From the NCBI GenBank assembly GCA_963971225.1, contig OZ020269.1, forward strand, positions 35,795,264-35,859,263: a stretch of 64,000 bases of DNA, read 5' to 3'. A program made the position numbers and the translations under genes. The DNA is from Melieria omissa (Eukaryota; Arthropoda; Insecta; Diptera; Ulidiidae). Below, piece by piece: positions 4,324 through 41,299 of this stretch; the stretch's first letter is position 1; each line of letters opens with the position of its first letter. Under the pieces are notes generated by a model. The model was not told the DNA's origin. It was given only the letters and a program-made list of their open reading frames with translations, and did no database searches.

Positions 4324-4362
4324 CACAGTGATTCGACTCCATACAACCGCGGGACAAAATTA
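4324..4362 (+). repeat. Transib left end: RSS-like, 23-bp spacer
   Basis: Heptamer CACAGTG (4324-4330) is identical to the consensus heptamer of V(D)J recombination signals. A 23-bp spacer follows (4331-4353), then ACAAAATTA (4354-4362), which matches the start of the nonamer consensus. The outside is the duplicated CACTG. Confidence 0.8.
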
Positions 4363-5116
4363 GAAGGAGTGGTCTGTTCTTCATAAAATTTGGTATACTA
4401 GTTAATCATGGTCTGCTGAACTGAAATATCCATTTTTTTTTCTTAAACTTTTGTAGTTTAGCAATGCCAGGGTCTTGAATTTTCAAATTTCGTCATTTTT
4501 GGAGAGCTATAGTACCAAGTGTGTTGGCTAGATTTTTCAGATTTTACATTTAATCGGTAACGCCAACATTGATTATTCCAAAGAGTAACAGAAATTGTTT
4601 TAGGACCCTCTGGTTTTGCAATAAAAACGATAATAATAGATGTATGTTTTGCTTTTTTGCAGTTTTCTCAATTTTTCATGCTGATTGCATACTTTTAGGG
4701 ATGAATAAAATTTATTTTTGTTTTTCATGTTTCATAATTTATTTTGGTTACAAAGAGAAATAAACTTACACCTATGATTGAAGCTGTTTTGGCTTACAAT
4801 ACATATTTTATAGTAAACGCTATGAGTAAAATAATGAAAGTATAAATATTTGCCGATTACAAGAGTGTGTGTAGATAACTTAAAACTGGTTTAGATTTTG
4901 TTTTTTTGTTTTTTATGAGGAGTAAAAGCATCGAAAGCCCAAGTCAGTGCGAGACTTCAACCCGCTAAACATCTCCTCTTGTCCGACGGATAGTTGTTCC
5001 ATAAACTACCGCTAAGTATTTCGTCGGGAGACCGTCTAGAGCATTATAGTTCAATCGTTAGTTTTTTGGCAGTCTAGTCCGTTACCGTCAGGTGTGAAGT
5101 AGGGCCGGTTGGCGCT

Positions 5117-6641
5117 CTATCCAGCAAATTGAGTGCAATTATCATCCTTATCGCCATCATGAATGTAATAATTCACGGTTGAATCCATCGGCGACCCGGT
5201 TTTTGCTTGGATTTTTCTTCTGGATGATAACAGGGGATCCGAAGAAGTTAGCAAATGGTTAAGTAGGTCCGAATTTGTGGCCACTCGAGATGTTTTTCGT
5301 GTATGATGTAAGCGCGTGTTGCGTATGTCTTTGTGACGAGCTTCAAATGCTTCTTCAGATAAGCTTCCTTGAAAATTAAAGTATTTTATTACGTCGCATC
5401 CGTGTACCAATACTTTATGCACAGAACTTGGCATATTGTACCAGCTGGAGTGTTGTATGTAGTCATTTCTGGTCTTGTCCAGCAACTCCGAAAAGCGGTC
5501 CGTAATAATGTTTCTGCAGCACGACAAGACTCTCAATATTATTGAAAAATTAAAGAGTAAGTTTTTATTGAGGCCAGTTATTTCAGCTGCAACCTCAATA
5601 TTTGCGAAGAATTTGCGAGCGGTATTTCCGTCGTTCATGTTGCCGCCGCTTGGCTTGACGTGATCTACCAATAAACCCATTTTGACTCTGAATTCGTTTT
5701 GAATTCGCTTCCTGTTTTCCAAATATATGGCTTTATTTTCGGCACGAACTTGCCAGCATTTGAATTGCAGTCGATATGAAATGTGAAGGCAGCACTCAAA
5801 AAAACGAATCCAACAGTGAAGAGTAGATAACCCATACTCGTAATTGTTAACATTTGGAGTTTTGACCAAATCAACGCGATTCATTTCTGTTGGGTTGGCC
5901 TTGCAAATGAAACACTTACTGCATGCTCTCGTGTCCGTCAAAGCATTAGCAACTGAGCCGTCAATCATGGTGCAGTGCATCACGTAGGAGACATCCACTG
6001 CATTCCTATGATCCTCAAATATATCAGGCTGCAACTTTGCTATATTGCTTTTCATTATGTCGTTTTCGTGAATAATAACACTTTTATTTTCTTTTGCCAT
6101 TATGATTTTTACTGGTCTACAAAACAATGTTGAGCAAGGCCTTTTGTTTGTCCACACATCCATTTTTGTTGCTGAATCAACAAGCCTATGACAAATGAAT
6201 AACGGAAATATAACTAAATAGAAATGTTATAATGTGTATATAATTTGAAACTAACTTTATCGGAACCATTGCCACAAGAAACATAAACTCATCCGACTGC
6301 TCTTCAGAGGAGAACTTCTGTTTATACTGGCTATGACCAGAGCTGCCATCCATACCCCATTTGCATATGAGGGTGGTTTTTTGAGGCAGATTTTCTTTGT
6401 CGGAAAGCTTCAGCACACTGCTTGCCGTTGTTCTCAGTAGTTCTTGTAATTCTACTTGTGCTGAGCATTCTGTAGCTGAAACTTCTGGGACTAATGACTT
6501 CGTTAAATTTCGCAATGCATATAATGTCGGAAAACAGTTTTCGTGAACTTTATTCACAACATTTCGCAAAACAGTGTAAAACTCTGTTTTGACGTTTGAA
6601 CACGTTTTACGTCTTCCAGCTTTCGTGCTAGTACTCTGTTG
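5117..6641 (-). CDS. Transib/RAG1-like transposase, catalytic core
   Basis: This is a DDE recombinase of the RAG1/Transib family, which cuts and joins transposon ends. Two exons are visible: 6641-6256 and 6185-5117. The 70-bp intron between them (6186-6255) has GT..AG ends and joins VPIK to LVDSATK in frame. The catalytic residues stand where the family has them: Asp in KWGMDGSSGHSQYKQ (6348-6350), Asp in CTMIDGSVANALT (5960-5962) and Glu in GSLSEEAFEARHK (5354-5356). Zinc ligands C-x2-C (KCFIC) and H-x4-H (VHKVLVH) and the GNMNDGNTARKFF motif are also kept. About 484 residues are open without a stop. The N-terminal 150-200 residues are not identified. A splice acceptor (TATAG) at 6642 suggests the upstream exon lies across the LTR array, but I found none. 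Confidence 0.8.
6186..6255 (-). other. 70-bp intron in the Transib transposase
   Basis: The donor GTTAGT starts at 6255 and the acceptor CATAG ends at 6186. Unspliced, the frame runs into a stop just past VPIKLV; spliced, it continues into a region matching the family (DVWTNKRPCSTLFCRP). Confidence 0.75.
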
Positions 6642-6816
6642 CTATAATGCTTGTGAATATTACCACTCAGATAGACTTTAGTGCTAATACAACTTTTTAT
6701 AACAATGCATATTGTTACGAAATTCCCCAGTTCGTTATCGACGGTTCGTTTTGATTGTATTTGAAAATAAAACAACTTCAGTTATCCGGCGCAACGTAGT
6801 CAAAACTAGCAATCGC

Positions 6817-6822
6817 TTTATT
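6817..6822 (-). terminator. LTR polyadenylation signal
   Basis: AATAAA on the minus strand, about 90 bp downstream of the TATA box, present in each LTR. It sets the likely end of R in the retroviral-type transcript. Confidence 0.5.
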
Positions 6823-6908
6823 TACAGAATTCACACTTCGCTTGTATCTACACTTGTCACCACTTTGCTTGCTTAACACAGACTCGACCCCTTGCGCTGC
6901 CACTGCTG

Positions 6909-6916
6909 CTTTTATA
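6909..6916 (-). promoter_or_regulatory. LTR TATA box
   Basis: TATAAAAG on the minus strand inside LTR 1. It recurs in every LTR at +5,510-bp steps. Transcription would start roughly 25-30 bp further along the minus strand, near 6880. Confidence 0.6.
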
Positions 6917-7154
6917 CCACTTTTCTTATCGCGCCGAAGTTTCTTGCAACTTCTAATTGGAAAGCGCTCGACCATTCTCGCACAGCCCATTTCGAGAACC
7001 ATCCCTGCCATATCGGACTATACCAAGCGAATTTATAACAGTTTTGCTGTACTTCACAGTGCATGCCTAAAAGTATGCTTGGAAAACATTCGTGCGGAGA
7101 AGGCATTCCCGTACACTGCGGCACAGAATTTCTCATCGTATCACTGCCCATCAC

Positions 7155-8614
7155 TTAGACTTGTTCGTCCCGAACAAGTACCGAGGCTTCGCCGGAGTAA
7201 GACGCCAGGCGCTCCAAATGGACTACTTTCAGCCTGGCGTTTCCATTGCAGCAGCGTTGAACCCTGTACACCACGTCATTAATCCTGGTCACGACTTTGT
7301 ACGGTCCTTCCCATGACGTTTGAAGCTTTGGAGACAAACCTTTCCTGCGCTGCGGGTTGTAAAGCATTACCAGATCGCCTTCTTGGAACCCCGCTGTGTT
7401 AGCTCGTAGATCATATCTGGCTTTCATCTTATCGCTGACCAGTTGGATACGGTCCCTTATAAACTGGTGGATTTCTTCCAGCTCCGATCGCTTATTAACT
7501 GCGTAATCAGTCTTAGCGCCTTCCGTCGTGCTGACCACTCCGAACTTCAAGTCAGCAGGCAATCTCAGCTCTGTGCCGAACACTGCTCGGGCTGGAGTGA
7601 GTGATGTCGTATCGTGCGGGGCTGACCTATACGCCATCAAGAACAGCGGAATATGCGTGTCCCAATCCTTTTGGTTCCTGCCTACTACTTTCCGCAGATA
7701 TTCCTCCAGTGTTCGATTGAATCGTTCCACCATGCCGTCGGACTGGGGATGCAAAGGACAGGTGCGAGTTTTCCTTATTCCTAGTAGCTCACACACTTCT
7801 TTTAATATAAGAGACTCGAAATTCCGGCCTTGATCCGAGTGCAACTCCAGTGGAACTCCAAATCTGGCCACCCAGTTGTTTACCAACATTTCCGCGACCG
7901 TGGTGGCCTCCTGGTTAGGAATAGGATACACTTCGGGCCATTTGCTGAAATAGTCCATCACCACCAGCACATATTTGTTGCCTTGAGTGCTAAGTGGGAA
8001 TGGCCCGGCGACGTCCATGGCAATTCGCTCAAAGGGCGCTCCCATGTTGTACTGCTGCATGCGGCCCCGAGATCTTCTTGTTGGCCCTTTCGCAGCCGAA
8101 CATCGATCACAGCTCTTAATCCAATCGGCGACAGACTCCTGGCATCCTACCCAGTAGAATCGCCTTTTTATTTTGGCGACAGTTTTTGTGATGCCTAGGT
8201 GCCCTCCGCTAGAGTCGTTATGGTATGCCTCGATCACCTCGTTGATCCTGCATTTCGGGACTAAAATTAGGGAATTGCTGGTCCGGCCATCCTCACTCTC
8301 CCACTCGCGGTATAGGCAACCATCAGACAGCCGCAGACTTTGCCACTGCGCCCAGCCTTCGCGATCGGGCTCTCACCGGCCATCTCCTGCCAGTCTGGAC
8401 GTGCGCCTTGCTCCTTGCCTTCAATGATTTTTTTAAGATCCGTATCCTCGCGCTGGTCCTTTTGTATCCTCTCCGCAGACCACTCCTCCTCTGGCAGAAC
8501 GCTGACCAATCGTACGTCCACTATCTGCTCTTTGCTTTCGGCTCGCGAACAATGCCTGCATTCGGTTTTGCACGGACGGCGTGACAAGGCATCGGCATTT
8601 CCATGGCTGCTACC
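7155..8614 (-). CDS. Pol, linker plus integrase (unit 1), frame-broken
   Basis: The integrase inserts the cDNA into host DNA. The N-terminal zinc part has the H-x-H/C-x2-C pattern (AYHNDSSGGHLG, SCDRC). The catalytic triad is Asp in MDVAGP, Asp in LHSDQGRNFES and Glu in SDGMVERFNRTLEEYL, and a C-terminal WEGPYKV module of the GPY/F type follows. The linker begins right after an in-frame TAG (8615-8617) with the family motif HGNADALSR. It runs to a 1-base frame change near 8368, where the integrase frame takes over (that frame has a stop at 8373-8375). Both breaks recur in all six units. Unit 1 alone has Gly in WVGCQES (C at 8147); the others have Arg. Confidence 0.85.
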
Positions 8615-10747
8615 CTAGCGATGCTCTACCGTGTAGTCGTAGCTCTGCAGCCGCTCGATCCACCGCGCCAATTGGCCTTCCGGATCTTTAAAGTTCAGTA
8701 GCCATTTCAATGCCGCATGATCTGTGCGCAGGCGAAACTTTTGCCCATACAGGTATTTATGGAAGTGTTTCACGCATTCCAGTACTGCGAGCAACTCCCT
8801 TCGGGTCACACAGTAGTTGCGTTCAGGCTTTGACAAAATTTTGCTGTAGTACGCTATCACTTGTTCTTGGCCATCTATTATCTGTGACAGCACACCGCCA
8901 ATACTATGCCCACTTGCATCTGTATCCAGCACAAACATCTCTCCAGGAACGGGGAAGGCCAGAATTGGAGCAGTGCACAGTTTTTCCTTCAGTCGTGCAA
9001 AAGCCTGCTCCTGCTCTTCACCCCACGCGAAGGCTTGATTCTTTTTCGTCAGTTTGTGCAAGCTGCCAGCTATGTTCGCAAATCCTGGAACGAATCTTCG
9101 GTAGTATGTGCACAGGCCCAGGAAACTGCGGAGTTCGTGTAGATTGCGTGGCCGGGGCCACTCCTTCACCGCCGTGATCTTGCCTTCGTCCGTATGTACT
9201 CCGCGAGCGGAAACCGTGTGACCCAAATACTTGACCTCTTTTTGGAACAGCGAGCACTTCTTTGGGTTGAGTTTAAGCCCGGCTTTCTGTATTCGCTCAA
9301 ATACCTCCTTCAGCTTTTCCAGGTGGTCGTCGAAGCTTTTGCCCATCACGATTATGTCGTCGAGGTATACCAGACACGTCCGCCAATGCAGCCCTTTCAG
9401 CACACGCTCCATTAGCCGCTCGAATGTTGCTGGTGCGTTGCAGAGTCCAAACGGCATGCCGGTGAACTGCCACAAACCGTCGCCAACACTAAAAGCCGTT
9501 TTCTCCTTGTCCTGGTCTGCAAGTTCCACCTGGCAATAGCCGCTGCGTAAGTCGAGTGTGGAAAACCACTGTGTGCCTGACAGTGTGTCCAGGGTGTCAT
9601 CGATCCGAGGTAGTGGATAGCTGTCCTTCTTGGTCACGTCATTGAGCTTCCGATAGTCCACACAGAATCGGGTACTGCCATCCTTTTTCTTGACTAGCAC
9701 GACCGGCGAGCACCAAGGACCTGACGAAGGCTCTATGACCTTTTCTGTATGCATGTTTTCAATCAAATTTGCGACCTCTTCCCTCTTGGCCAGAGGAACT
9801 CGTCTTGGCGGTTGGCGGATTGGTTTCGCATTTCCGGTGTCGATGTTGTGCTTCACTATGGCTGTTCTTCCGCCCGCTTCCGTCGCAAATATTGACCCAT
9901 AGTGCTGCAGGAGTGACCGCGCCTTCTGTTTCTGCTCGGCTGTCAATTCGCTGCTCCACTGGTTCTGCGGTATGGCGTCCATGTTAGAACCGCTTTTCTT
10001 ACTTCCTCCGGGTGGACTGCTTTCGCAATTGACAACTGCTTCAGCCTCTCTACACTCGCCAATGACCGCATCTTTTTCGACATATCTGGGTGTGTTCAGT
10101 GGGTTGAGTATCCTTACTGGTATTTTGCCATTTTTGGGTTCCACTAATGTACGTCCGATTATTATGTTGTCGTATCCTTGTTTTTGCGCTTCCACAACCC
10201 ACAGCCGGCTTGTCCCATCGTCCTCGTCCACTTTCGCCCACACGATCGCCTCGGAATTCGCTGGTATCTTCTGATGTTGACACGAGACAACTCTCCTTAC
10301 CGCCACGCTTCGCTCATAGCCAGTGTGCAGGGGGAATTCAACGTTGGCATACTTCAGCACATTTTCTTTCAGGTCCAGCGTAAAACCATGCCTAATCATG
10401 AAATCGACGCCGATAATCACGTCGTCCATTATGTCCGCGACGATGAACTCATGTTCCAGGCTGCTGGTGCCGATAGCAATTGTTTTTGTTACTTTCCCTC
10501 TTACCGGCGCACGCTCGCCAGTCGCAGTCCTCAGCTGTATGCCATGCAGTGGTTCCCAGTTCTTCAGAAGCTTCCTTTTTATGATCGAATATGACGCTCC
10601 AGTATCCAGTGTCAACACGAACAACTTTCCATCTATCTTTCCTTCAATCGTCAAGCTGCTGGGTTGTCGTTTCAACTGCGAGACAAGGACGGTGGGGCAG
10701 CAGGTTGTGGGGATCAGCTCACGCCCCTTTGGGCTGATCCGTTTTAG
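8615..10747 (-). CDS. Pol, protease-reverse transcriptase-RNase H (unit 1)
   Basis: An aspartic protease (LTLDTGASYSII) is followed by a reverse transcriptase, with CVDYRKLN, the catalytic VYLDDIIVMG box and FGLCNAPATF. RNase H follows (LDTDASG, RRELLAV, LRTDHAALKWL). The frame has no ATG at its start. It is open from the end of gag in the -1 frame, so it is probably made as a Gag-Pol fusion by frameshifting at 10747-10753. It ends at a TAG (8615-8617) directly after YDYTVEHR, where related elements read on into HGNADALSR. The enzyme would copy genomic RNA into cDNA in virus-like particles. Confidence 0.88.
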   Translation of the reverse strand, partial: LKRISPKGRELIPTTCCPTVLVSQLKRQPSSLTIEGKIDGKLFVLTLDTGASYSIIKRKLLKNWEPLHGIQLRTATGERAPVRGKVTKTIAIGTSSLEHEFIVADIMDDVIIGVDFMIRHGFTLDLKENVLKYANVEFPLHTGYERSVAVRRVVSCQHQKIPANSEAIVWAKVDEDDGTSRLWVVEAQKQGYDNIIIGRTLVEPKNGKIPVRILNPLNTPRYVEKDAVIGECREAEAVVNCESSPPGGSKKSGSNMDAIPQNQWSSELTAEQKQKARSLLQHYGSIFATEAGGRTAIVKHNIDTGNAKPIRQPPRRVPLAKREEVANLIENMHTEKVIEPSSGPWCSPVVLVKKKDGSTRFCVDYRKLNDVTKKDSYPLPRIDDTLDTLSGTQWFSTLDLRSGYCQVELADQDKEKTAFSVGDGLWQFTGMPFGLCNAPATFERLMERVLKGLHWRTCLVYLDDIIVMGKSFDDHLEKLKEVFERIQKAGLKLNPKKCSLFQKEVKYLGHTVSARGVHTDEGKITAVKEWPRPRNLHELRSFLGLCTYYRRFVPGFANIAGSLHKLTKKNQAFAWGEEQEQAFARLKEKLCTAPILAFPVPGEMFVLDTDASGHSIGGVLSQIIDGQEQVIAYYSKILSKPERNYCVTRRELLAVLECVKHFHKYLYGQKFRLRTDHAALKWLLNFKDPEGQLARWIERLQSYDYTVEHR

Positions 10748-10753
10748 TTTAAC
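10711..10753 (-). promoter_or_regulatory. Probable -1 ribosomal frameshift signal at gag/pol
   Basis: The heptamer GTTAAAC (10753-10747, minus) is phased G-TTA-AAC and overlaps the last gag codons before its TAA. After a 6-nt gap comes an 8-bp stem: GGATCAGC (10740-10733) pairs with GCTGATCC (10718-10711). GGGG in the loop (10727-10724) could pair with CCCC downstream (10697-10694), giving a pseudoknot. Pol is open in exactly the -1 frame. The same layout recurs at 16221-16263, 21731-21773, 27241-27283, 32751-32793 and 38261-38303. Confidence 0.7.
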
Positions 10754-12162
10754 GACTCGTCGTCCTCAGCCCTGCGCTTGTTGGCTGGGCCTCTACTGTC
10801 AGTATTACTCGCTTCAGGCGATTGCGAACGAGAACGGGAACGCCTCTTTCGTTGGCGGCAGTCTCGTGCTATGTGACCCTGCTTGCCACATGTCCAGCAA
10901 ACAACCTTAGAGGAGACAACCCGTGGCCTGCCCGGTGTCTCAGAGCTTATGGCCTGGATCGAAATTTCGCTGTCTGGCTGGATTTGGCGTATCCTTGCAG
11001 GTGCATACCGAGTGGCTCCAATCCATGTCGCCTCATATGTCATCGCGCTGGTCACCGTTTCCTTGTATGTCGCCTTGCCCATCATCAACGCACTGCGACG
11101 TGTCTCGGGGTCATGAAGACCTTCAATGAACGACTCAATCTTCATCCTCTCGAGATCATCAGCCCCGAATTTTGGGTAGCACAACTGTACGAGCCGCTCA
11201 ATATCTGCTGCATATGTCTGCAGCGCCTCGCTGGCTCTCTGCCTGCGGTTCTTCAGCTCACAGTAGTACAGCGTATGGTTGTGCTCGTTGCTGTACTTCA
11301 CTGCCAACGCTCTCATGACGGCCTCGTAATCACTTCTCGAACATTCCGGAACTGATTTCATTACCTCAGCCGCAGGACCTTTCAGCGCCAGAGCCAATCT
11401 CCGACCCTTCCTGATATCGGTCCACTGATTTTCCAAAGCAGCTAAGTCGAATTGCAGTTTAAATGTATCGAACGGCGTAGCACCATCATAAGTAGGCACT
11501 TCTGTTCGGGTGGCGAAACTTTCCGGAACCGGCGGCAAACATTCTCGTGGCTGTACTTCTCTAAGCCGCTCGTCGATTTTTCTGTTTACCGAATCCTCCA
11601 GACTGTCAACTCGTTTGTCTAAATGTTCTACTCGCGTCTCCAGGTGCTCAACTTTCACATTAATCCTGTTCGAAATCTCTTCCACTTTCTGCTCCAAGCG
11701 CGCAGAATTTTCCTGAAGCTTGGTTTCCATTCGCTCTGCTACTTCTCGGTTCGTAGTTTCGATTTTTGCCGAAAGTTCCTGATTCGCGGTTTCCAGTTTC
11801 GTTGCCATTTGCGCCGACATTTCGCGATTTTCATTTTCCATTTTGGCTGCCATTTCACGGTTGGAAGTCTCAAACATGCCTTTAAGTGCAACCATTAACT
11901 GGCTCATGTCCATTGCTTGTGGTGGCGTAGCCGCTGCAGCTGTACTTTGCATCGACGCAGCACCAGCAGGCGATTCCTCCACCTTGGCCGACGCCTCTTG
12001 TTCCTGCGTTCCTAACTCGTGTGCAGCCCAATCAATGCCTCTTGATTCACACGCTTCTCGCAAACGCAGCTGCAACTCCACCTTACCGCCAGCAGTCGGC
12101 AAATTCCAGGCAGCCAGCTCCTTCTTCAGCTGGTCAACCTTCAGCAGCTCCAGTTTAACCAT
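10744..12162 (-). CDS. Gag (unit 1), 472 aa
   Basis: This is the structural protein of the particle. Residues 1-45 look like a SAP fold (LKVDQLKKELAAWNLPTAGG, then KVELQLRL), a DNA-binding helix pair unusual in Gag but known in some insect gypsy elements. Residues about 95-215 are a long heptad-rich coiled coil with repeated ET-NRE(M/V) units. About 235-385 is a retrotransposon-gag capsid-like region, and a zinc knuckle CWTCGKQGHIARDC follows near 428-441, then an RS-rich basic tail. It starts at the ATG at 12162, 40 bases past the primer site, and stops at TAA 10744-10746 inside the frameshift signal. Confidence 0.88.
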   Translation of the reverse strand: MVKLELLKVDQLKKELAAWNLPTAGGKVELQLRLREACESRGIDWAAHELGTQEQEASAKVEESPAGAASMQSTAAAATPPQAMDMSQLMVALKGMFETSNREMAAKMENENREMSAQMATKLETANQELSAKIETTNREVAERMETKLQENSARLEQKVEEISNRINVKVEHLETRVEHLDKRVDSLEDSVNRKIDERLREVQPRECLPPVPESFATRTEVPTYDGATPFDTFKLQFDLAALENQWTDIRKGRRLALALKGPAAEVMKSVPECSRSDYEAVMRALAVKYSNEHNHTLYYCELKNRRQRASEALQTYAADIERLVQLCYPKFGADDLERMKIESFIEGLHDPETRRSALMMGKATYKETVTSAMTYEATWIGATRYAPARIRQIQPDSEISIQAISSETPGRPRVVSSKVVCWTCGKQGHIARDCRQRKRRSRSRSQSPEASNTDSRGPANKRRAEDDESLN

Positions 12163-12201
12163 GTTTCCGTTTTTATAATTTTATTTTACTTTCAGTAATA
12201 C

Positions 12202-12220
12202 AATCCCACTTCTGACACCA
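12202..12220 (-). other. Primer binding site (tRNA-Leu type)
   Basis: Two bases inside the LTR end, the minus strand reads TGGTGTCAGAAGTGGGATT. This is complementary to a tRNA 3' end ...AATCCCACTTCTGACACCA. The acceptor-stem half fits tRNA-Leu (5' GTCAGAA). It primes minus-strand cDNA. It recurs at 5,510-bp steps beside each LTR except the left-most. Confidence 0.7.
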
Positions 12221-12222
12221 AA

Positions 12223-12653
12223 TGTTACGAAATTCCCCAGTTCGTTATCGACGGTTCGTTTTGATTGTATTTGAAAATAAAACAACTTCAGTTATCCGGC
12301 GCAACGTAGTCAAAACTAGCAATCGCTTTATTTACAGAATTCACACTTCGCTTGTATCTACACTTGTCACCACTTTGCTTGCTTAACACAGACTCGACCC
12401 CTTGCGCTGCCACTGCTGCTTTTATACCACTTTTCTTATCGCGCCGAAGTTTCTTGCAACTTCTAATTGGAAAGCGCTCGACCATTCTCGCACAGCCCAT
12501 TTCGAGAACCATCCCTGCCATATCGGACTATACCAAGCGAATTTATAACAGTTTTGCTGTACTTCACAGTGCATGCCTAAAAGTATGCTTGGAAAACATT
12601 CGTGCGGAGAAGGCATTCCCGTACACTGCGGCACAGAATTTCTCATCGTATCA
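12223..12653 (-). repeat. LTR 2, shared by units 1 and 2
   Basis: 431 bp and apparently identical to LTR 1. It serves as the 5' LTR of unit 1 and the 3' LTR of unit 2. No target duplication surrounds it, because internal sequence abuts both sides. Confidence 0.9.
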
Positions 12654-12664
12654 CTGCCCATCAC

Positions 12665-17672: not shown

Positions 17673-17732
17673 GTTTCCGTTTTTATAATTTTATTTTACT
17701 TTCAGTAATACAATCCCACTTCTGACACCAAA

Positions 17733-18163
17733 TGTTACGAAATTCCCCAGTTCGTTATCGACGGTTCGTTTTGATTGTATTTGAAAATAAAACAACTTCA
17801 GTTATCCGGCGCAACGTAGTCAAAACTAGCAATCGCTTTATTTACAGAATTCACACTTCGCTTGTATCTACACTTGTCACCACTTTGCTTGCTTAACACA
17901 GACTCGACCCCTTGCGCTGCCACTGCTGCTTTTATACCACTTTTCTTATCGCGCCGAAGTTTCTTGCAACTTCTAATTGGAAAGCGCTCGACCATTCTCG
18001 CACAGCCCATTTCGAGAACCATCCCTGCCATATCGGACTATACCAAGCGAATTTATAACAGTTTTGCTGTACTTCACAGTGCATGCCTAAAAGTATGCTT
18101 GGAAAACATTCGTGCGGAGAAGGCATTCCCGTACACTGCGGCACAGAATTTCTCATCGTATCA
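17733..18163 (-). repeat. LTR 3, shared by units 2 and 3
   Basis: 431 bp, same ends and signals as the other LTRs. Confidence 0.9.
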
Positions 18164-28692: not shown

Positions 28693-28752
28693 GTTTCCGT
28701 TTTTATAATTTTATTTTACTTTCAGTAATACAATCCCACTTCTGACACCAAA

Positions 28753-29183
28753 TGTTACGAAATTCCCCAGTTCGTTATCGACGGTTCGTTTTGATTGTAT
28801 TTGAAAATAAAACAACTTCAGTTATCCGGCGCAACGTAGTCAAAACTAGCAATCGCTTTATTTACAGAATTCACACTTCGCTTGTATCTACACTTGTCAC
28901 CACTTTGCTTGCTTAACACAGACTCGACCCCTTGCGCTGCCACTGCTGCTTTTATACCACTTTTCTTATCGCGCCGAAGTTTCTTGCAACTTCTAATTGG
29001 AAAGCGCTCGACCATTCTCGCACAGCCCATTTCGAGAACCATCCCTGCCATATCGGACTATACCAAGCGAATTTATAACAGTTTTGCTGTACTTCACAGT
29101 GCATGCCTAAAAGTATGCTTGGAAAACATTCGTGCGGAGAAGGCATTCCCGTACACTGCGGCACAGAATTTCTCATCGTATCA
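28753..29183 (-). repeat. LTR 5, shared by units 4 and 5
   Basis: 431 bp, same ends and signals as the other LTRs. Confidence 0.9.
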
Positions 29184-29194
29184 CTGCCCATCAC

Positions 29195-32787: not shown

Positions 32788-34202
32788 TTTAACGACTCGT
32801 CGTCCTCAGCCCTGCGCTTGTTGGCTGGGCCTCTACTGTCAGTATTACTCGCTTCAGGCGATTGCGAACGAGAACGGGAACGCCTCTTTCGTTGGCGGCA
32901 GTCTCGTGCTATGTGACCCTGCTTGCCACATGTCCAGCAAACAACCTTAGAGGAGACAACCCGTGGCCTGCCCGGTGTCTCAGAGCTTATGGCCTGGATC
33001 GAAATTTCGCTGTCTGGCTGGATTTGGCGTATCCTTGCAGGTGCATACCGAGTGGCTCCAATCCATGTCGCCTCATATGTCATCGCGCTGGTCACCGTTT
33101 CCTTGTATGTCGCCTTGCCCATCATCAACGCACTGCGACGTGTCTCGGGGTCATGAAGACCTTCAATGAACGACTCAATCTTCATCCTCTCGAGATCATC
33201 AGCCCCGAATTTTGGGTAGCACAACTGTACGAGCCGCTCAATATCTGCTGCATATGTCTGCAGCGCCTCGCTGGCTCTCTGCCTGCGGTTCTTCAGCTCA
33301 CAGTAGTACAGCGTATGGTTGTGCTCGTTGCTGTACTTCACTGCCAACGCTCTCATGACGGCCTCGTAATCACTTCTCGAACATTCCGGAACTGATTTCA
33401 TTACCTCAGCCGCAGGACCTTTCAGCGCCAGAGCCAATCTCCGACCCTTCCTGATATCGGTCCACTGATTTTCCAAAGCAGCTAAGTCGAATTGCAGTTT
33501 AAATGTATCGAACGGCGTAGCACCATCATAAGTAGGCACTTCTGTTCGGGTGGCGAAACTTTCCGGAACCGGCGGCAAACATTCTCGTGGCTGTACTTCT
33601 CTAAGCCGCTCGTCGATTTTTCTGTTTACCGAATCCTCCAGACTGTCAACTCGTTTGTCTAAATGTTCTACTCGCGTCTCCAGGTGCTCAACTTTCACAT
33701 TAATCCTGTTCGAAATCTCTTCCACTTTCTGCTCCAAGCGCGCAGAATTTTCCTGAAGCTTGGTTTCCATTCGCTCTGCTACTTCTCGGTTCGTAGTTTC
33801 GATTTTTGCCGAAAGTTCCTGATTCGCGGTTTCCAGTTTCGTTGCCATTTGCGCCGACATTTCGCGATTTTCATTTTCCATTTTGGCTGCCATTTCACGG
33901 TTGGAAGTCTCAAACATGCCTTTAAGTGCAACCATTAACTGGCTCATGTCCATTGCTTGTGGTGGCGTAGCCGCTGCAGCTGTACTTTGCATCGACGCAG
34001 CACCAGCAGGCGATTCCTCCACCTTGGCCGACGCCTCTTGTTCCTGCGTTCCTAACTCGTGTGCAGCCCAATCAATGCCTCTTGATTCACACGCTTCTCG
34101 CAAACGCAGCTGCAACTCCACCTTACCGCCAGCAGTCGGCAAATTCCAGGCAGCCAGCTCCTTCTTCAGCTGGTCAACCTTCAGCAGCTCCAGTTTAACC
34201 AT
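32784..34202 (-). CDS. Gag (unit 5)
   Basis: Majority sequence, 472 aa. Confidence 0.87.
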   Translation of the reverse strand: MVKLELLKVDQLKKELAAWNLPTAGGKVELQLRLREACESRGIDWAAHELGTQEQEASAKVEESPAGAASMQSTAAAATPPQAMDMSQLMVALKGMFETSNREMAAKMENENREMSAQMATKLETANQELSAKIETTNREVAERMETKLQENSARLEQKVEEISNRINVKVEHLETRVEHLDKRVDSLEDSVNRKIDERLREVQPRECLPPVPESFATRTEVPTYDGATPFDTFKLQFDLAALENQWTDIRKGRRLALALKGPAAEVMKSVPECSRSDYEAVMRALAVKYSNEHNHTLYYCELKNRRQRASEALQTYAADIERLVQLCYPKFGADDLERMKIESFIEGLHDPETRRSALMMGKATYKETVTSAMTYEATWIGATRYAPARIRQIQPDSEISIQAISSETPGRPRVVSSKVVCWTCGKQGHIARDCRQRKRRSRSRSQSPEASNTDSRGPANKRRAEDDESLN

Positions 34203-34262
34203 GTTTCCGTTTTTATAATTTTATTTTACTTTCAGTAATACAATCCCACTTCTGACACCAAA

Positions 34263-34693
34263 TGTTACGAAATTCCCCAGTTCGTTATCGACGGTTCGTT
34301 TTGATTGTATTTGAAAATAAAACAACTTCAGTTATCCGGCGCAACGTAGTCAAAACTAGCAATCGCTTTATTTACAGAATTCACACTTCGCTTGTATCTA
34401 CACTTGTCACCACTTTGCTTGCTTAACACAGACTCGACCCCTTGCGCTGCCACTGCTGCTTTTATACCACTTTTCTTATCGCGCCGAAGTTTCTTGCAAC
34501 TTCTAATTGGAAAGCGCTCGACCATTCTCGCACAGCCCATTTCGAGAACCATCCCTGCCATATCGGACTATACCAAGCGAATTTATAACAGTTTTGCTGT
34601 ACTTCACAGTGCATGCCTAAAAGTATGCTTGGAAAACATTCGTGCGGAGAAGGCATTCCCGTACACTGCGGCACAGAATTTCTCATCGTATCA
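34263..34693 (-). repeat. LTR 6, shared by units 5 and 6
   Basis: 431 bp, same ends and signals as the other LTRs. Confidence 0.9.
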
Positions 34694-34704
34694 CTGCCCA
34701 TCAC

Positions 34705-36164
34705 TTAGACTTGTTCGTCCCGAACAAGTACCGAGGCTTCGCCGGAGTAAGACGCCAGGCGCTCCAAATGGACTACTTTCAGCCTGGCGTTTCCATTGCA
34801 GCAGCGTTGAACCCTGTACACCACGTCATTAATCCTGGTCACGACTTTGTACGGTCCTTCCCATGACGTTTGAAGCTTTGGAGACAAACCTTTCCTGCGC
34901 TGCGGGTTGTAAAGCATTACCAGATCGCCTTCTTGGAACCCCGCTGTGTTAGCTCGTAGATCATATCTGGCTTTCATCTTATCGCTGACCAGTTGGATAC
35001 GGTCCCTTATAAACTGGTGGATTTCTTCCAGCTCCGATCGCTTATTAACTGCGTAATCAGTCTTAGCGCCTTCCGTCGTGCTGACCACTCCGAACTTCAA
35101 GTCAGCAGGCAATCTCAGCTCTGTGCCGAACACTGCTCGGGCTGGAGTGAGTGATGTCGTATCGTGCGGGGCTGACCTATACGCCATCAAGAACAGCGGA
35201 ATATGCGTGTCCCAATCCTTTTGGTTCCTGCCTACTACTTTCCGCAGATATTCCTCCAGTGTTCGATTGAATCGTTCCACCATGCCGTCGGACTGGGGAT
35301 GCAAAGGACAGGTGCGAGTTTTCCTTATTCCTAGTAGCTCACACACTTCTTTTAATATAAGAGACTCGAAATTCCGGCCTTGATCCGAGTGCAACTCCAG
35401 TGGAACTCCAAATCTGGCCACCCAGTTGTTTACCAACATTTCCGCGACCGTGGTGGCCTCCTGGTTAGGAATAGGATACACTTCGGGCCATTTGCTGAAA
35501 TAGTCCATCACCACCAGCACATATTTGTTGCCTTGAGTGCTAAGTGGGAATGGCCCGGCGACGTCCATGGCAATTCGCTCAAAGGGCGCTCCCATGTTGT
35601 ACTGCTGCATGCGGCCCCGAGATCTTCTTGTTGGCCCTTTCGCAGCCGAACATCGATCACAGCTCTTAATCCAATCGGCGACAGACTCCTGGCATCTTAC
35701 CCAGTAGAATCGCCTTTTTATTTTGGCGACAGTTTTTGTGATGCCTAGGTGCCCTCCGCTAGAGTCGTTATGGTATGCCTCGATCACCTCGTTGATCCTG
35801 CATTTCGGGACTAAAATTAGGGAATTGCTGGTCCGGCCATCCTCACTCTCCCACTCGCGGTATAGGCAACCATCAGACAGCCGCAGACTTTGCCACTGCG
35901 CCCAGCCTTCGCGATCGGGCTCTCACCGGCCATCTCCTGCCAGTCTGGACGTGCGCCTTGCTCCTTGCCTTCAATGATTTTTTTAAGATCCGTATCCTCG
36001 CGCTGGTCCTTTTGTATCCTCTCCGCAGACCACTCCTCCTCTGGCAGAACGCTGACCAATCGTACGTCCACTATCTGCTCTTTGCTTTCGGCTCGCGAAC
36101 AATGCCTGCATTCGGTTTTGCACGGACGGCGTGACAAGGCATCGGCATTTCCATGGCTGCTACC
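34705..36164 (-). CDS. Pol linker plus integrase (unit 6), frame-broken
   Basis: Majority sequence with the shared frame change and the TAG at 36165-36167. Confidence 0.83.
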
Positions 36165-38297
36165 CTAGCGATGCTCTACCGTGTAGTCGTAGCTCTGCAG
36201 CCGCTCGATCCACCGCGCCAATTGGCCTTCCGGATCTTTAAAGTTCAGTAGCCATTTCAATGCCGCATGATCTGTGCGCAGGCGAAACTTTTGCCCATAC
36301 AGGTATTTATGGAAGTGTTTCACGCATTCCAGTACTGCGAGCAACTCCCTTCGGGTCACACAGTAGTTGCGTTCAGGCTTTGACAAAATTTTGCTGTAGT
36401 ACGCTATCACTTGTTCTTGGCCATCTATTATCTGTGACAGCACACCGCCAATACTATGCCCACTTGCATCTGTATCCAGCACAAACATCTCTCCAGGAAC
36501 GGGGAAGGCCAGAATTGGAGCAGTGCACAGTTTTTCCTTCAGTCGTGCAAAAGCCTGCTCCTGCTCTTCACCCCACGCGAAGGCTTGATTCTTTTTCGTC
36601 AGTTTGTGCAAGCTGCCAGCTATGTTCGCAAATCCTGGAACGAATCTTCGGTAGTATGTGCACAGGCCCAGGAAACTGCGGAGTTCGTGTAGATTGCGTG
36701 GCCGGGGCCACTCCTTCACCGCCGTGATCTTGCCTTCGTCCGTATGTACTCCGCGAGCGGAAACCGTGTGACCCAAATACTTGACCTCTTTTTGGAACAG
36801 CGAGCACTTCTTTGGGTTGAGTTTAAGCCCGGCTTTCTGTATTCGCTCAAATACCTCCTTCAGCTTTTCCAGGTGGTCGTCGAAGCTTTTGCCCATCACG
36901 ATTATGTCGTCGAGGTATACCAGACACGTCCGCCAATGCAGCCCTTTCAGCACACGCTCCATTAGCCGCTCGAATGTTGCTGGTGCGTTGCAGAGTCCAA
37001 ACGGCATGCCGGTGAACTGCCACAAACCGTCGCCAACACTAAAAGCCGTTTTCTCCTTGTCCTGGTCTGCAAGTTCCACCTGGCAATAGCCGCTGCGTAA
37101 GTCGAGTGTGGAAAACCACTGTGTGCCTGACAGTGTGTCCAGGGTGTCATCGATCCGAGGTAGTGGATAGCTGTCCTTCTTGGTCACGTCATTGAGCTTC
37201 CGATAGTCCACACAGAATCGGGTACTGCCATCCTTTTTCTTGACTAGCACGACCGGCGAGCACCAAGGACCTGACGAAGGCTCTATGACCTTTTCTGTAT
37301 GCATGTTTTCAATCAAATTTGCGACCTCTTCCCTCTTGGCCAGAGGAACTCGTCTTGGCGGTTGGCGGATTGGTTTCGCATTTCCGGTGTCGATGTTGTG
37401 CTTCACTATGGCTGTTCTTCCGCCCGCTTCCGTCGCAAATATTGACCCATAGTGCTGCAGGAGTGACCGCGCCTTCTGTTTCTGCTCGGCTGTCAATTCG
37501 CTGCTCCACTGGTTCTGCGGTATGGCGTCCATGTTAGAACCGCTTTTCTTACTTCCTCCGGGTGGACTGCTTTCGCAATTGACAACTGCTTCAGCCTCTC
37601 TACACTCGCCAATGACCGCATCTTTTTCGACATATCTGGGTGTGTTCAGTGGGTTGAGTATCCTTACTGGTATTTTGCCATTTTTGGGTTCCACTAATGT
37701 ACGTCCGATTATTATGTTGTCGTATCCTTGTTTTTGCGCTTCTACAACCCACAGCCGGCTTGTCCCATCGTCCTCGTCCACTTTCGCCCACACGATCGCC
37801 TCGGAATTCGCTGGTATCTTCTGATGTTGACACGAGACAACTCTCCTTACCGCCACGCTTCGCTCATAGCCAGTGTGCAGGGGGAATTCAACGTTGGCAT
37901 ACTTCAGCACATTTTCTTTCAGGTCCAGCGTAAAACCATGCCTAATCATGAAATCGACGCCGATAATCACGTCGTCCATTATGTCCGCGACGATGAACTC
38001 ATGTTCCAGGCTGCTGGTGCCGATAGCAATTGTTTTTGTTACTTTCCCTCTTACCGGCGCACGCTCGCCAGTCGCAGTCCTCAGCTGTATGCCATGCAGT
38101 GGTTCCCAGTTCTTCAGAAGCTTCCTTTTTATGATCGAATATGACGCTCCAGTATCCAGTGTCAACACGAACAACTTTCCATCTATCTTTCCTTCAATCG
38201 TCAAGCTGCTGGGTTGTCGTTTCAACTGCGAGACAAGGACGGTGGGGCAGCAGGTTGTGGGGATCAGCTCACGCCCCTTTGGGCTGATCCGTTTTAG
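36165..38297 (-). CDS. Pol PR-RT-RNase H (unit 6)
   Basis: Majority sequence. I saw no private change. Confidence 0.85.
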   Translation of the reverse strand, partial: LKRISPKGRELIPTTCCPTVLVSQLKRQPSSLTIEGKIDGKLFVLTLDTGASYSIIKRKLLKNWEPLHGIQLRTATGERAPVRGKVTKTIAIGTSSLEHEFIVADIMDDVIIGVDFMIRHGFTLDLKENVLKYANVEFPLHTGYERSVAVRRVVSCQHQKIPANSEAIVWAKVDEDDGTSRLWVVEAQKQGYDNIIIGRTLVEPKNGKIPVRILNPLNTPRYVEKDAVIGECREAEAVVNCESSPPGGSKKSGSNMDAIPQNQWSSELTAEQKQKARSLLQHYGSIFATEAGGRTAIVKHNIDTGNAKPIRQPPRRVPLAKREEVANLIENMHTEKVIEPSSGPWCSPVVLVKKKDGSTRFCVDYRKLNDVTKKDSYPLPRIDDTLDTLSGTQWFSTLDLRSGYCQVELADQDKEKTAFSVGDGLWQFTGMPFGLCNAPATFERLMERVLKGLHWRTCLVYLDDIIVMGKSFDDHLEKLKEVFERIQKAGLKLNPKKCSLFQKEVKYLGHTVSARGVHTDEGKITAVKEWPRPRNLHELRSFLGLCTYYRRFVPGFANIAGSLHKLTKKNQAFAWGEEQEQAFARLKEKLCTAPILAFPVPGEMFVLDTDASGHSIGGVLSQIIDGQEQVIAYYSKILSKPERNYCVTRRELLAVLECVKHFHKYLYGQKFRLRTDHAALKWLLNFKDPEGQLARWIERLQSYDYTVEHR

Positions 38298-39712
38298 TTT
38301 AACGACTCGTCGTCCTCAGCCCTGCGCTTGTTGGCTGGGCCTCTACTGTCAGTATTACTCGCTTCAGGCGATTGCGAACGAGAACGGGAACGCCTCTTTC
38401 GTTGGCGGCAGTCTCGTGCTATGTGACCCTGCTTGCCACATGTCCAGCAAACAACCTTAGAGGAGACAACCCGTGGCCTGCCCGGTGTCTCAGAGCTTAT
38501 GGCCTGGATCGAAATTTCGCTGTCTGGCTGGATTTGGCGTATCCTTGCAGGTGCATACCGAGTGGCTCCAATCCATGTCGCCTCATATGTCATCGCGCTG
38601 GTCACCGTTTCCTTGTATGTCGCCTTGCCCATCATCAACGCACTGCGACGTGTCTCGGGGTCATGAAGACCTTCAATGAACGACTCAATCTTCATCCTCT
38701 CGAGATCATCAGCCCCGAATTTTGGGTAGCACAACTGTACGAGCCGCTCAATATCTGCTGCATATGTCTGCAGCGCCTCGCTGGCTCTCTGCCTGCGGTT
38801 CTTCAGCTCACAGTAGTACAGCGTATGGTTGTGCTCGTTGCTGTACTTCACTGCCAACGCTCTCATGACGGCCTCGTAATCACTTCTCGAACATTCCGGA
38901 ACTGATTTCATTACCTCAGCCGCAGGACCTTTCAGCGCCAGAGCCAATCTCCGACCCTTCCTGATATCGGTCCACTGATTTTCCAAAGCAGCTAAGTCGA
39001 ATTGCAGTTTAAATGTATCGAACGGCGTAGCACCATCATAAGTAGGCACTTCTGTTCGGGTGGCGAAACTTTCCGGAACCGGCGGCAAACATTCTCGTGG
39101 CTGTACTTCTCTAAGCCGCTCGTCGATTTTTCTGTTTACCGAATCCTCCAGACTGTCAACTCGTTTGTCTAAATGTTCTACTCGCGTCTCCAGGTGCTCA
39201 ACTTTCACATTAATCCTGTTCGAAATCTCTTCCACTTTCTGCTCCAAGCGCGCAGAATTTTCCTGAAGCTTGGTTTCCATTCGCTCTGCTACTTCTCGGT
39301 TCGTAGTTTCGATTTTTGCCGAAAGTTCCTGATTCGCGGTTTCCAGTTTCGTTGCCATTTGCGCCGACATTTCGCGATTTTCATTTTCCATTTTGGCTGC
39401 CATTTCACGGTTGGAAGTCTCAAACATGCCTTTAAGTGCAACCATTAACTGGCTCATGTCCATTGCTTGTGGTGGCGTAGCCGCTGCAGCTGTACTTTGC
39501 ATCGACGCAGCACCAGCAGGCGATTCCTCCACCTTGGCCGACGCCTCTTGTTCCTGCGTTCCTAACTCGTGTGCAGCCCAATCAATGCCTCTTGATTCAC
39601 ACGCTTCTCGCAAACGCAGCTGCAACTCCACCTTACCGCCAGCAGTCGGCAAATTCCAGGCAGCCAGCTCCTTCTTCAGCTGGTCAACCTTCAGCAGCTC
39701 CAGTTTAACCAT
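38294..39712 (-). CDS. Gag (unit 6), first in transcription order
   Basis: Majority sequence, 472 aa. It lies next to the right-hand outer LTR, which would act as the 5' LTR for transcripts entering the array. Confidence 0.87.
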   Translation of the reverse strand: MVKLELLKVDQLKKELAAWNLPTAGGKVELQLRLREACESRGIDWAAHELGTQEQEASAKVEESPAGAASMQSTAAAATPPQAMDMSQLMVALKGMFETSNREMAAKMENENREMSAQMATKLETANQELSAKIETTNREVAERMETKLQENSARLEQKVEEISNRINVKVEHLETRVEHLDKRVDSLEDSVNRKIDERLREVQPRECLPPVPESFATRTEVPTYDGATPFDTFKLQFDLAALENQWTDIRKGRRLALALKGPAAEVMKSVPECSRSDYEAVMRALAVKYSNEHNHTLYYCELKNRRQRASEALQTYAADIERLVQLCYPKFGADDLERMKIESFIEGLHDPETRRSALMMGKATYKETVTSAMTYEATWIGATRYAPARIRQIQPDSEISIQAISSETPGRPRVVSSKVVCWTCGKQGHIARDCRQRKRRSRSRSQSPEASNTDSRGPANKRRAEDDESLN

Positions 39713-39772
39713 GTTTCCGTTTTTATAATTTTATTTTACTTTCAGTAATACAATCCCACTTCTGACACCAAA

Positions 39773-40203
39773 TGTTACGAAATTCCCCAGTTCGTTATCG
39801 ACGGTTCGTTTTGATTGTATTTGAAAATAAAACAACTTCAGTTATCCGGCGCAACGTAGTCAAAACTAGCAATCGCTTTATTTACAGAATTCACACTTCG
39901 CTTGTATCTACACTTGTCACCACTTTGCTTGCTTAACACAGACTCGACCCCTTGCGCTGCCACTGCTGCTTTTATACCACTTTTCTTATCGCGCCGAAGT
40001 TTCTTGCAACTTCTAATTGGAAAGCGCTCGACCATTCTCGCACAGCCCATTTCGAGAACCATCCCTGCCATATCGGACTATACCAAGCGAATTTATAACA
40101 GTTTTGCTGTACTTCACAGTGCATGCCTAAAAGTATGCTTGGAAAACATTCGTGCGGAGAAGGCATTCCCGTACACTGCGGCACAGAATTTCTCATCGTA
40201 TCA
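39773..40203 (-). repeat. LTR 7 (right edge of array)
   Basis: 431 bp. Its right neighbour is Transib DNA, and the target duplication ATAT follows at 40204-40207. It appears identical to LTR 1, which implies a recent insertion or homogenisation. Confidence 0.9.
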
Positions 40204-40207
40204 ATAT

Positions 40208-41270
40208 GATTTGTTTAATTTGTCTAACAGTAGACGGATACATTTTTTATATACAGCTGCCGATATTCAGCAAAAAGCTAATTCGCGATTTGTAATTACT
40301 TCAGCCATTTCAAACGATTTCACCAAACTGCTCTTTTGCGAATGAATTCTGACATTGCCAAACAAACAAATTGTTCAAAATTCACGACTTTTTCCGTTAG
40401 CTACTTTTAGGGTGTTATATTTTTTAACCTCCTAAAACCCTAACCGAAATTTTTTTTAAATTTTCAGTTTCGTACCTAAAAAATTTACACTGAACACTTT
40501 AAAAACTATGAGATGAGTCGCTAATCACATTTCATTCATTTATATGTGTATATAATTTTTAGGTACATTCGATTTGTCTTCGAGGAAGCAAAAGTAAACG
40601 TATAATTGAGTAGTTCCTTCACAATTCATATCGATGACAAAATATTTGAATGGGTTAAAAGGGAAAATATGTGAAGAATGATTTGTTTTTTATACTTTTA
40701 GGCTACCGAATTTAAATACATTTTTTGTCGAAAAATAGGTGTTTAGACCACTTTTCAAATTGAATTATTTTCTGAGATCGGAAGATATCGGAGGATGTGA
40801 ATACATTTTCCGACAAAGAAAGAGTGCTTCTTAAAATAAGCCAAAATCCAGGAACATACTTTCACATACTTTTTAGATATTTTCCTCTCAATTTTGCCAA
40901 TTTTCAGATTTTTAATTTTAAAAAATATTTTAAATTAAAAGTGAAGTAAAAGCCGATGCTTTGCAAATTTTGAGAAAACATTAAAAGCGAAAATGCCCAC
41001 ACCAATTTTTATGTTGAATTTCTATTTTATTTCTATGTTGAAAGTTTCAGAAAGTTTTTGTTAAACATGTATTTTTACGATTTTTTTTACTCAATACACA
41101 AAAAACAGAAAATATGTGTTGCATTTTTTCGAGAAAAAAGTTTCAACTTTGAGCAGCTTTTGCAGCCACACTAATTAATTTTTTGCACAGATTTTTTGGG
41201 GTTTTCTTAGTTGGAGTTTTACCTTTCGAATGACATCAAAATCGTTAAATTCTGAGACCATACATTTTTT
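40208..41270. other. AT-rich 5' part of the Transib element
   Basis: This is upstream DNA of the transposase on the minus strand. I looked for its missing N-terminal exon and found only short frames broken by stops (one begins MSEFIRKRAVW near 40349 and stops at once). It is probably untranslated or intronic sequence, or a decayed 5' part. Confidence 0.45.
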
Positions 41271-41299
41271 GAATTTTGTCTATGGAACGAATCACTGTG
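41271..41299 (-). repeat. Transib right end: RSS-like, 13-bp spacer
   Basis: Read on the minus strand: heptamer CACAGTG (41299-41293), a 13-bp spacer (41292-41280), then ACAAAATTC (41279-41271). The duplicated CACTG stands outside at 41300-41304. The first five spacer bases, ATTCG, match the left end. Confidence 0.8.

What the first reader, a model, noticed from the sequence alone, without database searches (positions are those of the whole stretch)
4324..41299. Transib element whose ends mimic 12/23 V(D)J recombination signals
Both ends carry CACAGTG, the exact consensus RSS heptamer. The left end then has 23 bp before ACAAAATTA and the right end 13 bp before ACAAAATTC; counting GACAAAATT as the distal box gives 22 and 12. 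The 10-bp difference is one helical turn, as in 12/23 signals. A perfect 5-bp duplication CACTG confirms the boundaries. Transib ends are known to resemble RSSs, but I recall that most have similar spacers on both sides, so this asymmetric pair is a good candidate for study of how the 12/23 rule arose.
Basis: partly seen in the sequence, partly recalled or inferred. Interest (0 to 1): 0.9.

Follow-up and report, generated by a model that had tools for sequence, protein, structure and literature searches.

The report
Jumping gene with antibody-gene-like ends
This is a damaged copy of an abundant, recently active Transib jumping gene whose two unequal ends resemble the 12/23 signals that vertebrates use to assemble antibody genes; such ends were already known in some Transibs, but this genome holds over a thousand of them, so ideas on the origin of the 12/23 rule could be tested here.

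Summary
Window 4324 and 41299 are the ends of a Transib DNA transposon: CACAGTG-23 bp-ACAAAATTA and CACAGTG-13 bp-ACAAAATTC, inside a perfect CACTG duplication. A Transib transposase lies between (E 2e-82 to HzTransib). But only about 3.5 kb of the 37 kb is Transib; the rest is a 33.5-kb head-to-tail array of a Gypsy-type retrotransposon nested in it. This copy is broken by three deletions.

The asymmetry is a family trait. In the same genome the end pattern occurs 1,488 times (reversed control 0); all 100 listed places have spacer 13 or 23, and 21 of 21 inward pairs are 13/23. Of 39 fetched loci, 35 gave 36 pairs, all mixed; four had no partner in view. A second Transib family there has 12/23 ends in 19 of 19 listed pairs.

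Asymmetric 12/23-like Transib ends, and a nonamer-binding-like domain in Transibs, are already published (PMC8355894; PMC9435367; passages seen). So this is a new member of a known kind. Its worth is a recently active, two-family natural test of the 12/23 rule without RAG2. Whether the transposase enforces that rule is untested.

The parts
4319..4323 (.). left copy of the 5-bp target-site duplication CACTG
4324..4362 (+). 3' end of the Transib: heptamer CACAGTG, 23-bp spacer, ACAAAATTA
   Evidence: conserved in fetched copies
4324..6712 (-). left (3') arm of the Transib; relative to full-length copies it lacks about 47 bp near 5386 and about 171 bp near 6579-6595
5117..6185 (-). C-terminal transposase coding part (open frame 5117-6226, 369 aa) with the second catalytic D (TMIDGS) and the E (SEEAFEARHK)
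6186..6255 (-). probable 70-bp intron (GTTAGT...CATAG) joining the two frames
   Evidence: sequence, read by eye; frames and homologues
6256..6641 (-). remnant of the transposase exon with the first catalytic D (KWGMDGSSGHS), in the open frame 6186-6641; most of its nonamer-binding-like part is deleted
6709..6712 (.). 4-bp duplication ATAT made by the nested retrotransposon (second copy 40204-40207)
6713..40203 (-). nested head-to-tail array of a Gypsy/Ty3-type LTR retrotransposon: 7 identical 431-bp LTRs, 6 internal regions, period 5510 bp; not part of the Transib
40204..41299 (-). right (5') arm of the Transib; about 791 bp, including most of the first coding exon of the full-length copies, are missing near 40256
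41271..41299 (-). 5' end of the Transib: heptamer CACAGTG, 13-bp spacer, ACAAAATTC
   Evidence: conserved in fetched copies
41300..41304 (.). right copy of the target-site duplication CACTG

Best explanation
A non-autonomous deletion copy of a high-copy, recently active Transib cut-and-paste transposon. Shown: the family's ends are unequal in a fixed way, with a 13-bp spacer upstream of the transposase gene and a 23-bp spacer downstream, and both carry the same heptamer, ATTCG and GACAAAATT boxes. Inferred: a dimer of the RAG1-like transposase made by intact copies elsewhere binds one end of each type, with the catalytic part on the heptamer and the N-terminal nonamer-binding-like domain on the A-rich box; the one-turn difference is taken up by a hinge, as in RAG. 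It nicks at the heptamer, forms hairpins on the flanks and inserts with a 5-bp duplication, often at CANTG. The window copy itself can move only in trans, if at all, and carries a 33.5-kb nested retrotransposon array.
For: Transposase E 2e-82 to HzTransib. 1,488 exact end patterns, reversed control 0; 100 of 100 listed are 13 or 23, although 28 of the 100 carry spacer substitutions (counted by eye; only adds up my counts). 21 of 21 and 36 of 36 pairs mixed, one pair being in both sets. 15 full-length copies differ by 0.16-0.90% from their majority; 12 of 18 copies have open frames holding all the exon motifs searched for (three of the 12 are duplicates of one insertion). In the short copies the ATTCG and GACAAAATT boxes are the least variable stretches. 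The model of a homologue aligns with RAG1 from about the GRP motif onward in 5 of the 30 RAG1 rows shown.
Against: No biochemistry. Fixed mixed pairs are also expected from common descent. Copies with a 22-bp spacer (L019) or ACAAAACT (L028) have perfect duplications, so they or their parents moved, unless the changes came later. HzTransib, described as functional (PMC8355894 passages), aligns only after the N-terminal domain. In short copies the heptamer varies more than the boxes (3 of 126 and 7 of 119 cells), and in full-length copies the 30 bp beyond the left box vary as little as the core (1 of 600). By variable positions the left core is not more conserved than its flank (P 0.39), nor the right core in full-length copies (P 0.54). 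In the structure comparison 13 of 18 RAG1 chains of 600 residues or more were not aligned from the start of their nonamer-binding domain. Loci were picked by similarity to the left end.
Confidence: 0.8

Rival explanations
1. The unequal spacing is only inherited history: the transposase reads the outer 12-17 bp, and the distal box and spacing matter little, so no 12/23-like pairing exists.
For: Invertebrate RAG-like transposons are thought to rely on about 15-17 terminal bp and to be insensitive to asymmetry (PMC7204232 passages). HzTransib aligns only from the domain after the nonamer-binding part. L019 and L028 deviate yet have duplications. Common descent alone would give mixed pairs. The left core does not stand out from its flank by variable positions.
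Against: In short copies GACAAAATT is nearly invariant while the next 30 bp vary (1 of 162 and 1 of 153 cells against 34 of 540 and 47 of 510). A second family, about 47% identical in transposase, keeps its own 12/23 pair in 19 of 19 listed pairs, with the same polarity in the 4 copies where it could be read.
Confidence: 0.3
2. The distal box is a chance A-rich word and the RSS likeness is coincidental.
For: The nonamer match is only 6 of 9 and 7 of 9, and 6.1% of random places have a 6-of-9 word at such distances.
Against: Box and spacing recur at over a thousand sites, control 0. Separate pattern CACAGTG-N8-28-ACAAAAATC: 118 hits against 7 in the control; of 100 listed places 42 have spacer 12, 10 have 13, 29 have 23 and 19 anything else; these are repeats of a few families, so not independent places.
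Confidence: 0.04
3. The ends belong to two different insertions, or the true ends lie further out.
For: The two ends are 37 kb apart in the window.
Against: Perfect duplication in the window; 15 fetched copies of 4.43-4.48 kb have the same two ends, and in 28 of 36 pairs the 5 bases just outside match each other.
Confidence: 0.01

Closest known systems
Transib5 (Drosophila melanogaster) and Transib2/N1/N2/N3 (Anopheles gambiae), as cited in PMC8355894 from Kapitonov and Jurka 2005
   Same: Transib with 12/23 (+/- 1 bp) asymmetric RSS-like ends (figure legend and passages).
   Different: What the present genome adds is the copy number and a second family with exact 12/23 ends.
HzTransib (Helicoverpa zea; PDB 6pqn, 6pqx)
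   Same: Transposase homologous over the catalytic core; CAC-type heptamer and 5-bp duplication (PMC8289069 and PMC1852546 passages).
   Different: HzTransib's solved chain aligns only after the N-terminal GRP region; its ends are described as symmetric with little or no nonamer (PMC8289069 passages). The present family has the region, written GRR, in full-length copies and unequal ends.
V(D)J recombination signals (12-RSS and 23-RSS) with RAG1/RAG2
   Same: Heptamer identical to the consensus; A-rich box; spacers 23 and 13 here, 12 and 23 in the second family.
   Different: A mobile element. Nonamer only 6 and 7 of 9 in the window family; 8 and 7 of 9 in family B, counted by eye. RAG2 was not searched for; the 12/23 restriction itself is untested.
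ProtoRAG (amphioxus) and other RAG-like transposons
   Same: RAG1-type enzyme, 5-bp duplications, bipartite ends, asymmetric in amphioxus (27/31, PMC8355894 passages).
   Different: The transposase here is far closer to HzTransib than to RAG1L (E 2e-82 against 0.34).

Membership tests
Transib superfamily | RAG1-core-like DDE transposase related to known Transibs | tested here: met
   E 2.2e-82 to HzTransib over residues 22-341; both window frames match full-length homologues at 42-53%
Transib superfamily | catalytic D, D, E kept | tested here: met
   D in KWGMDGSS, D in TMIDGS and E in SEEAFEARHK align with HzTransib or homologues, taking the catalytic positions from PMC6941560 passages; but the window gene as a whole is broken
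Transib superfamily | 5-bp target-site duplication | tested here: met
   window CACTG; 28 of 36 fetched pairs with a perfect 5-bp duplication
Transib superfamily | terminal inverted repeats opening with a CAC heptamer | tested here: met
   CACAGTG at both ends
Transib superfamily | no RAG2-like gene in the element | not tested
   no RAG2 model was run on the elements
12/23 RSS-like ends (as in Transib5) | one spacer 23 and the other 12, each +/- 1 bp | tested here: met
   23 and 13 in the window; 21 of 21 pairs and 33 of 36 pairs exactly 23/13 (exceptions L019 22/13, L038 23/11 in a badly aligned end, second element in L041 undetermined)
12/23 RSS-like ends (as in Transib5) | heptamer CACAGTG and nonamer ACAAAAACC | tested here: inconclusive
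   heptamer 7 of 7 at both ends; nonamer 6 of 9 and 7 of 9
12/23 rule | enzyme cleaves or joins only mixed pairs | not testable with these tools
   needs a biochemical assay; mixed pairs in the genome do not prove it
RAG nonamer-binding domain in the transposase | GRP/GRR-type N-terminal helical region collinear with the RAG1 NBD | tested here: inconclusive
   28 of 33 homologues of 560 aa or more have a G-R-[PL] hit before the catalytic part (counted by eye, leaving out the false hit in P0053); model P0006 aligns from residue 88-98 with RAG1 391-408 in 5 of the 30 RAG1 rows shown, rmsd 8.6-12.7 (which warns that residues outside 140-600 are barely tested); the sequence profile alone does not find RAG1
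RAG-like (RAG1L/RAG2L) transposon | transposase closest to RAG1L | tested here: not met
   6b40 RAG1L E 0.34 against HzTransib 2.2e-82; a RAG2L partner was not searched for

The most novel reading that the evidence does not exclude
A real 12/23-type pairing restriction already operates in Transib transposases without RAG2: the enzyme synapses only one short-spacer and one long-spacer end, through its own nonamer-binding-like domain. At least two families in this one genome (13/23, and exact 12/23 with the same polarity) would be living examples of how the rule of antibody-gene assembly arose before RAG2.
Probability: 0.3. Interest if true: 0.88.

Novelty: new member of a known kind. Interest (0 to 1): 0.58.

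Why it matters
How the 12/23 rule arose is an open question, and one published view holds that the asymmetry is recognised only when RAG1 is bound to RAG2 (PMC8355894 passages). Here is one genome with a recently active 13/23 family (over a thousand ends, near-identical long copies with open frames, short derivatives) and a second family with 12/23 ends and the same polarity where it could be read: short spacer upstream of the transposase, long spacer downstream. That gives candidate intact enzymes, many natural end variants and their partners, so pairing rules can be tested directly, both by census of unusual pairs and in vitro.

Tried and rejected
Relatives in other collections: viral contigs and genome contigs gave none; these collections hold viruses and prokaryotes, and may leave out the window's own genome. 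The nonamer-binding-like region was not found by a profile search of solved structures (HzTransib's next helix at E 0.0016, then chance rows); the case rests on the structure model and on PMC9435367. The N-terminal part of the transposase was sought in the window with a profile and gave no significant match; the fetched copies showed deletions there (by eye a short start of the first exon remains, ending in a stop). Rejected: a 37-kb Transib; chance boxes; CACAGTG hits inside the retrotransposon as signals. Not achieved: the 5' end of a third family, whose 23-bp-spacer ends lie about 300 bp downstream of several transposase hits; its pattern did not complete. The 20-bp-spacer class (21 of 100 places) was not followed. 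The right-end DNA search did not complete. Repbase was not on hand and Kapitonov and Jurka 2005 is not held, so what they contain is cited at second hand or recalled.
Full report
What is there. The ends described are in the sequence at the stated bases. The left end reads CACAGTG, 23 bp, ACAAAATTA; the right end, on the minus strand, CACAGTG, 13 bp, ACAAAATTC. Both share CACAGTGATTCG, then a stretch ending TCCATA, then GACAAAATT; the left end has 9 extra bases in one place and one extra base in another (alignment). The flanks are a perfect CACTG duplication. Twelve identical terminal bases in inverted order were not reached in 200,000 random place pairs (best 10 of 12). The nonamer likeness taken alone is modest: 6 and 7 of 9, and 6.1% of random places have a 6-of-9 word at such distances.

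The inside. Two frames on the minus strand (5117-6226 and 6186-6641) encode a Transib transposase. The larger matches HzTransib at E 2.2e-82, and both match full-length homologues at 42-53% identity across a probable 70-bp intron, 6186-6255. The gene is on the minus strand, so the right end, with the 13-bp spacer, lies upstream of the transposase, and the left end, with the 23-bp spacer, downstream. The N-terminal 120 or so residues seen in homologues gave no significant match.

Most of the span is something else. From 6713 to 40203 lies a head-to-tail array of a Gypsy/Ty3-type LTR retrotransposon: seven identical 431-bp LTRs and six internal regions with gag (SAP and zinc-knuckle domains), protease-RT-RNaseH and integrase. 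It sits between 4-bp ATAT duplications. The Transib itself is about 3.5 kb.

Other copies. The window lies in an unnamed 490-Mb eukaryotic genome. A search with the left 200 bp scored 40 of 1,691 candidates. The 39 places other than the window were read: 20 and 19. Thirty-five of the 39 loci gave 36 element pairs; all 36 have one 23-type and one 13-type end, 33 with spacers measured as exactly 23 and 13. The exceptions are L019 (22/13), L038 (an end that aligned badly, 23/11) and the second element in L041 (one spacer undetermined). Four loci had no partner in the stretch read: L016, L025, L029, L033. Twenty-eight of 36 pairs have a perfect 5-bp duplication, 18 of these CANTG; some loci are duplicates of one insertion (L009/L010/L012, which lack a matching duplication; probably L031/L032/L039 and L044/L045), so these are not all independent.

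Fifteen full-length copies (4.43-4.48 kb) differ from their majority by 0.16 to 0.90%, which points to recent activity. Twelve of 18 examined copies keep open frames holding the motif searched for in the first exon, those of the exon with the first catalytic residue, and those of the other two catalytic residues; splicing was not tested, and three of the 12 are duplicates of one insertion. Against the majority the window copy lacks about 47, 171 and 791 bp, the last including most of the first coding exon and the middle one most of the nonamer-binding-like part (frames). So it is a deletion derivative that also received the retrotransposon.

Genome-wide. The pattern CACAGTGATTCG-N4-22-GACAAAATT has 1,488 exact matches; the reversed control has none. 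Of the 100 places listed, 56 have spacer 13 and 44 spacer 23, none any other length, although 28 of the 100 carry substitutions in the gap (my count by eye). Of inward-facing neighbours, 21 of 21 are 13/23; two further close neighbours are same-strand 13-type pairs. One of the 21, C1:25237860, is also L036. This pattern requires intact boxes, so it cannot see ends whose boxes are hit, and most listed ends had no intact partner nearby.

Conservation. In the short copies the five bases after the heptamer (0 of 90 and 0 of 85 cells changed) and the GACAAAATT box (1 of 162 and 1 of 153) vary least, against 34 of 540 and 47 of 510 cells in the 30 bp beyond; the heptamer itself varies more than the boxes (3 of 126 and 7 of 119). 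In full-length copies the 30 bp beyond the left box vary as little as the core (1 of 600). Counted as variable positions, the right core of the short copies differs strongly from its flank (7 of 28 against 133 of 172, P 1e-7), but the left does not (6 of 38 against 38 of 162, P 0.39), nor does the right core in full-length copies (P 0.54). Cells are not independent events and the loci were chosen by left-end similarity.

A second family with 12/23 ends. A protein search of the same genome gave 132 matches, 111 of 2,076 candidates being scored. Twenty-one rows, the window's own included, are 96% or more identical; the 13 rows next in rank, at 46-48% identity, look like another family (9 with frames of 560-569 aa). 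Two copies of it (99.8% alike over 982 bp) start with CACAGTG, 12 bp, ACAAAAATC. One of them ends, inside a CGCCG duplication, with 23 bp before ACAAAAATA; its own 3' heptamer is CGCCGTG, not CACAGTG. The pattern CACAGTGTCGCG-N2-30-ACAAAA has 233 matches, control 0. Of 100 listed, spacers are 12 (43), 23 (33), 20 (21), 35 (2) and 10 (1); 19 of 19 inward pairs are 12/23 (lengths taken from coordinates). Where a transposase hit lies inside such a pair (3 of the 9 hits tried), and in the copy read directly, the 12-type end is upstream of the gene, the same polarity as in the window family. The 20-bp class was not explained. A wider pattern, CACAGTG-N8-28-ACAAAAATC, has 118 matches against 7 in the control; of 100 listed, 42 have spacer 12, 10 have 13, 29 have 23, and 19 something else; most of these are repeats of a few families.

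How it probably works. Catalysis should follow HzTransib and RAG (nick, hairpin on the flank, 5-bp staggered insertion); that is inference from homology. For the distal box, homologues have an N-terminal region with a GRP motif and basic helices, which HzTransib's solved chain lacks. A model of homologue P0006 (mean pLDDT 87) aligns with RAG1 from about the GRP motif (residue 89), residues 88-98 against RAG1 391-408, in 5 of the 30 RAG1 rows shown, at large rmsd (8.6-12.7). The other 25 begin later, among them 13 of the 18 chains of 600 residues or more, and the tool warns that residues outside 140-600 are barely tested. The window family's full-length copies carry the region with GRR. PMC9435367 already reports an equivalent nonamer-binding domain with GRP in both Transib subgroups (passages). 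That this domain holds the A-rich box, and that its hinge measures 13 versus 23 bp, is inference.

What is known. PMC8289069 (passages) says most Transib families have symmetric ends. PMC8355894 (passages and legend) lists Transibs with 12/23 asymmetry, credited to Kapitonov and Jurka 2005, which I could not read. PMC9435367 (passages) reports asymmetric ends in all Subgroup I and some Subgroup II Transibs. So the kind is known.

Verdict. Observation confirmed; interpretation supported; novelty of the asymmetry itself overstated. What goes beyond the finding is the family-wide constancy, the young long copies, and the second family with 12/23 ends and matching polarity in one genome.

Noticed in passing
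window 6713-40203: Head-to-tail array of one Gypsy/Ty3-type retrotransposon: seven identical LTRs, six internal regions, only seven variable sites among units, one outer ATAT duplication. Could be LTR-LTR unequal exchange or an assembly effect.
   Followed up: partly
window 7155-12180 and its repeats: In the array units RT-RNaseH (716 aa) and integrase (405 aa) lie in separate open frames of the same lengths in all six units; the gag frame has an N-terminal SAP domain (one unit scanned).
   Followed up: no
L009-L047: Target preference: 18 of 28 perfect duplications are CANTG (CATTG 9, CACTG 5, CAATG 4); a few loci are duplicates of one insertion.
   Followed up: partly
L009, L010, L012 (C1 76.4-76.8 Mb): Three full-length copies share the same 40-bp flanks and the same mismatched outer bases, so they look like duplicates of one insertion.
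   Followed up: partly
own genome: Many further Transib-like matches, most at 36-58% identity to the window's transposase and some with long open frames (up to 839 aa): a Transib-rich genome.
   Followed up: partly
own genome, (e.g. C1:85423103, C1:132862943): A third family shows CACAGTG-23 bp-ACAAAAATC about 300 bp downstream of transposase matches; its other end was not found.
   Followed up: partly
own genome: A class of ends CACAGTGTCGCG...ACAAAA with a 20-bp spacer (21 of 100 listed places) that formed none of the 19 inward pairs.
   Followed up: no
window 45027-58624: Host genes beside the element: exons of an OPA1-like dynamin, a protein kinase, and a ubiquitin hydrolase with UCH and DUSP domains.
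   Followed up: no
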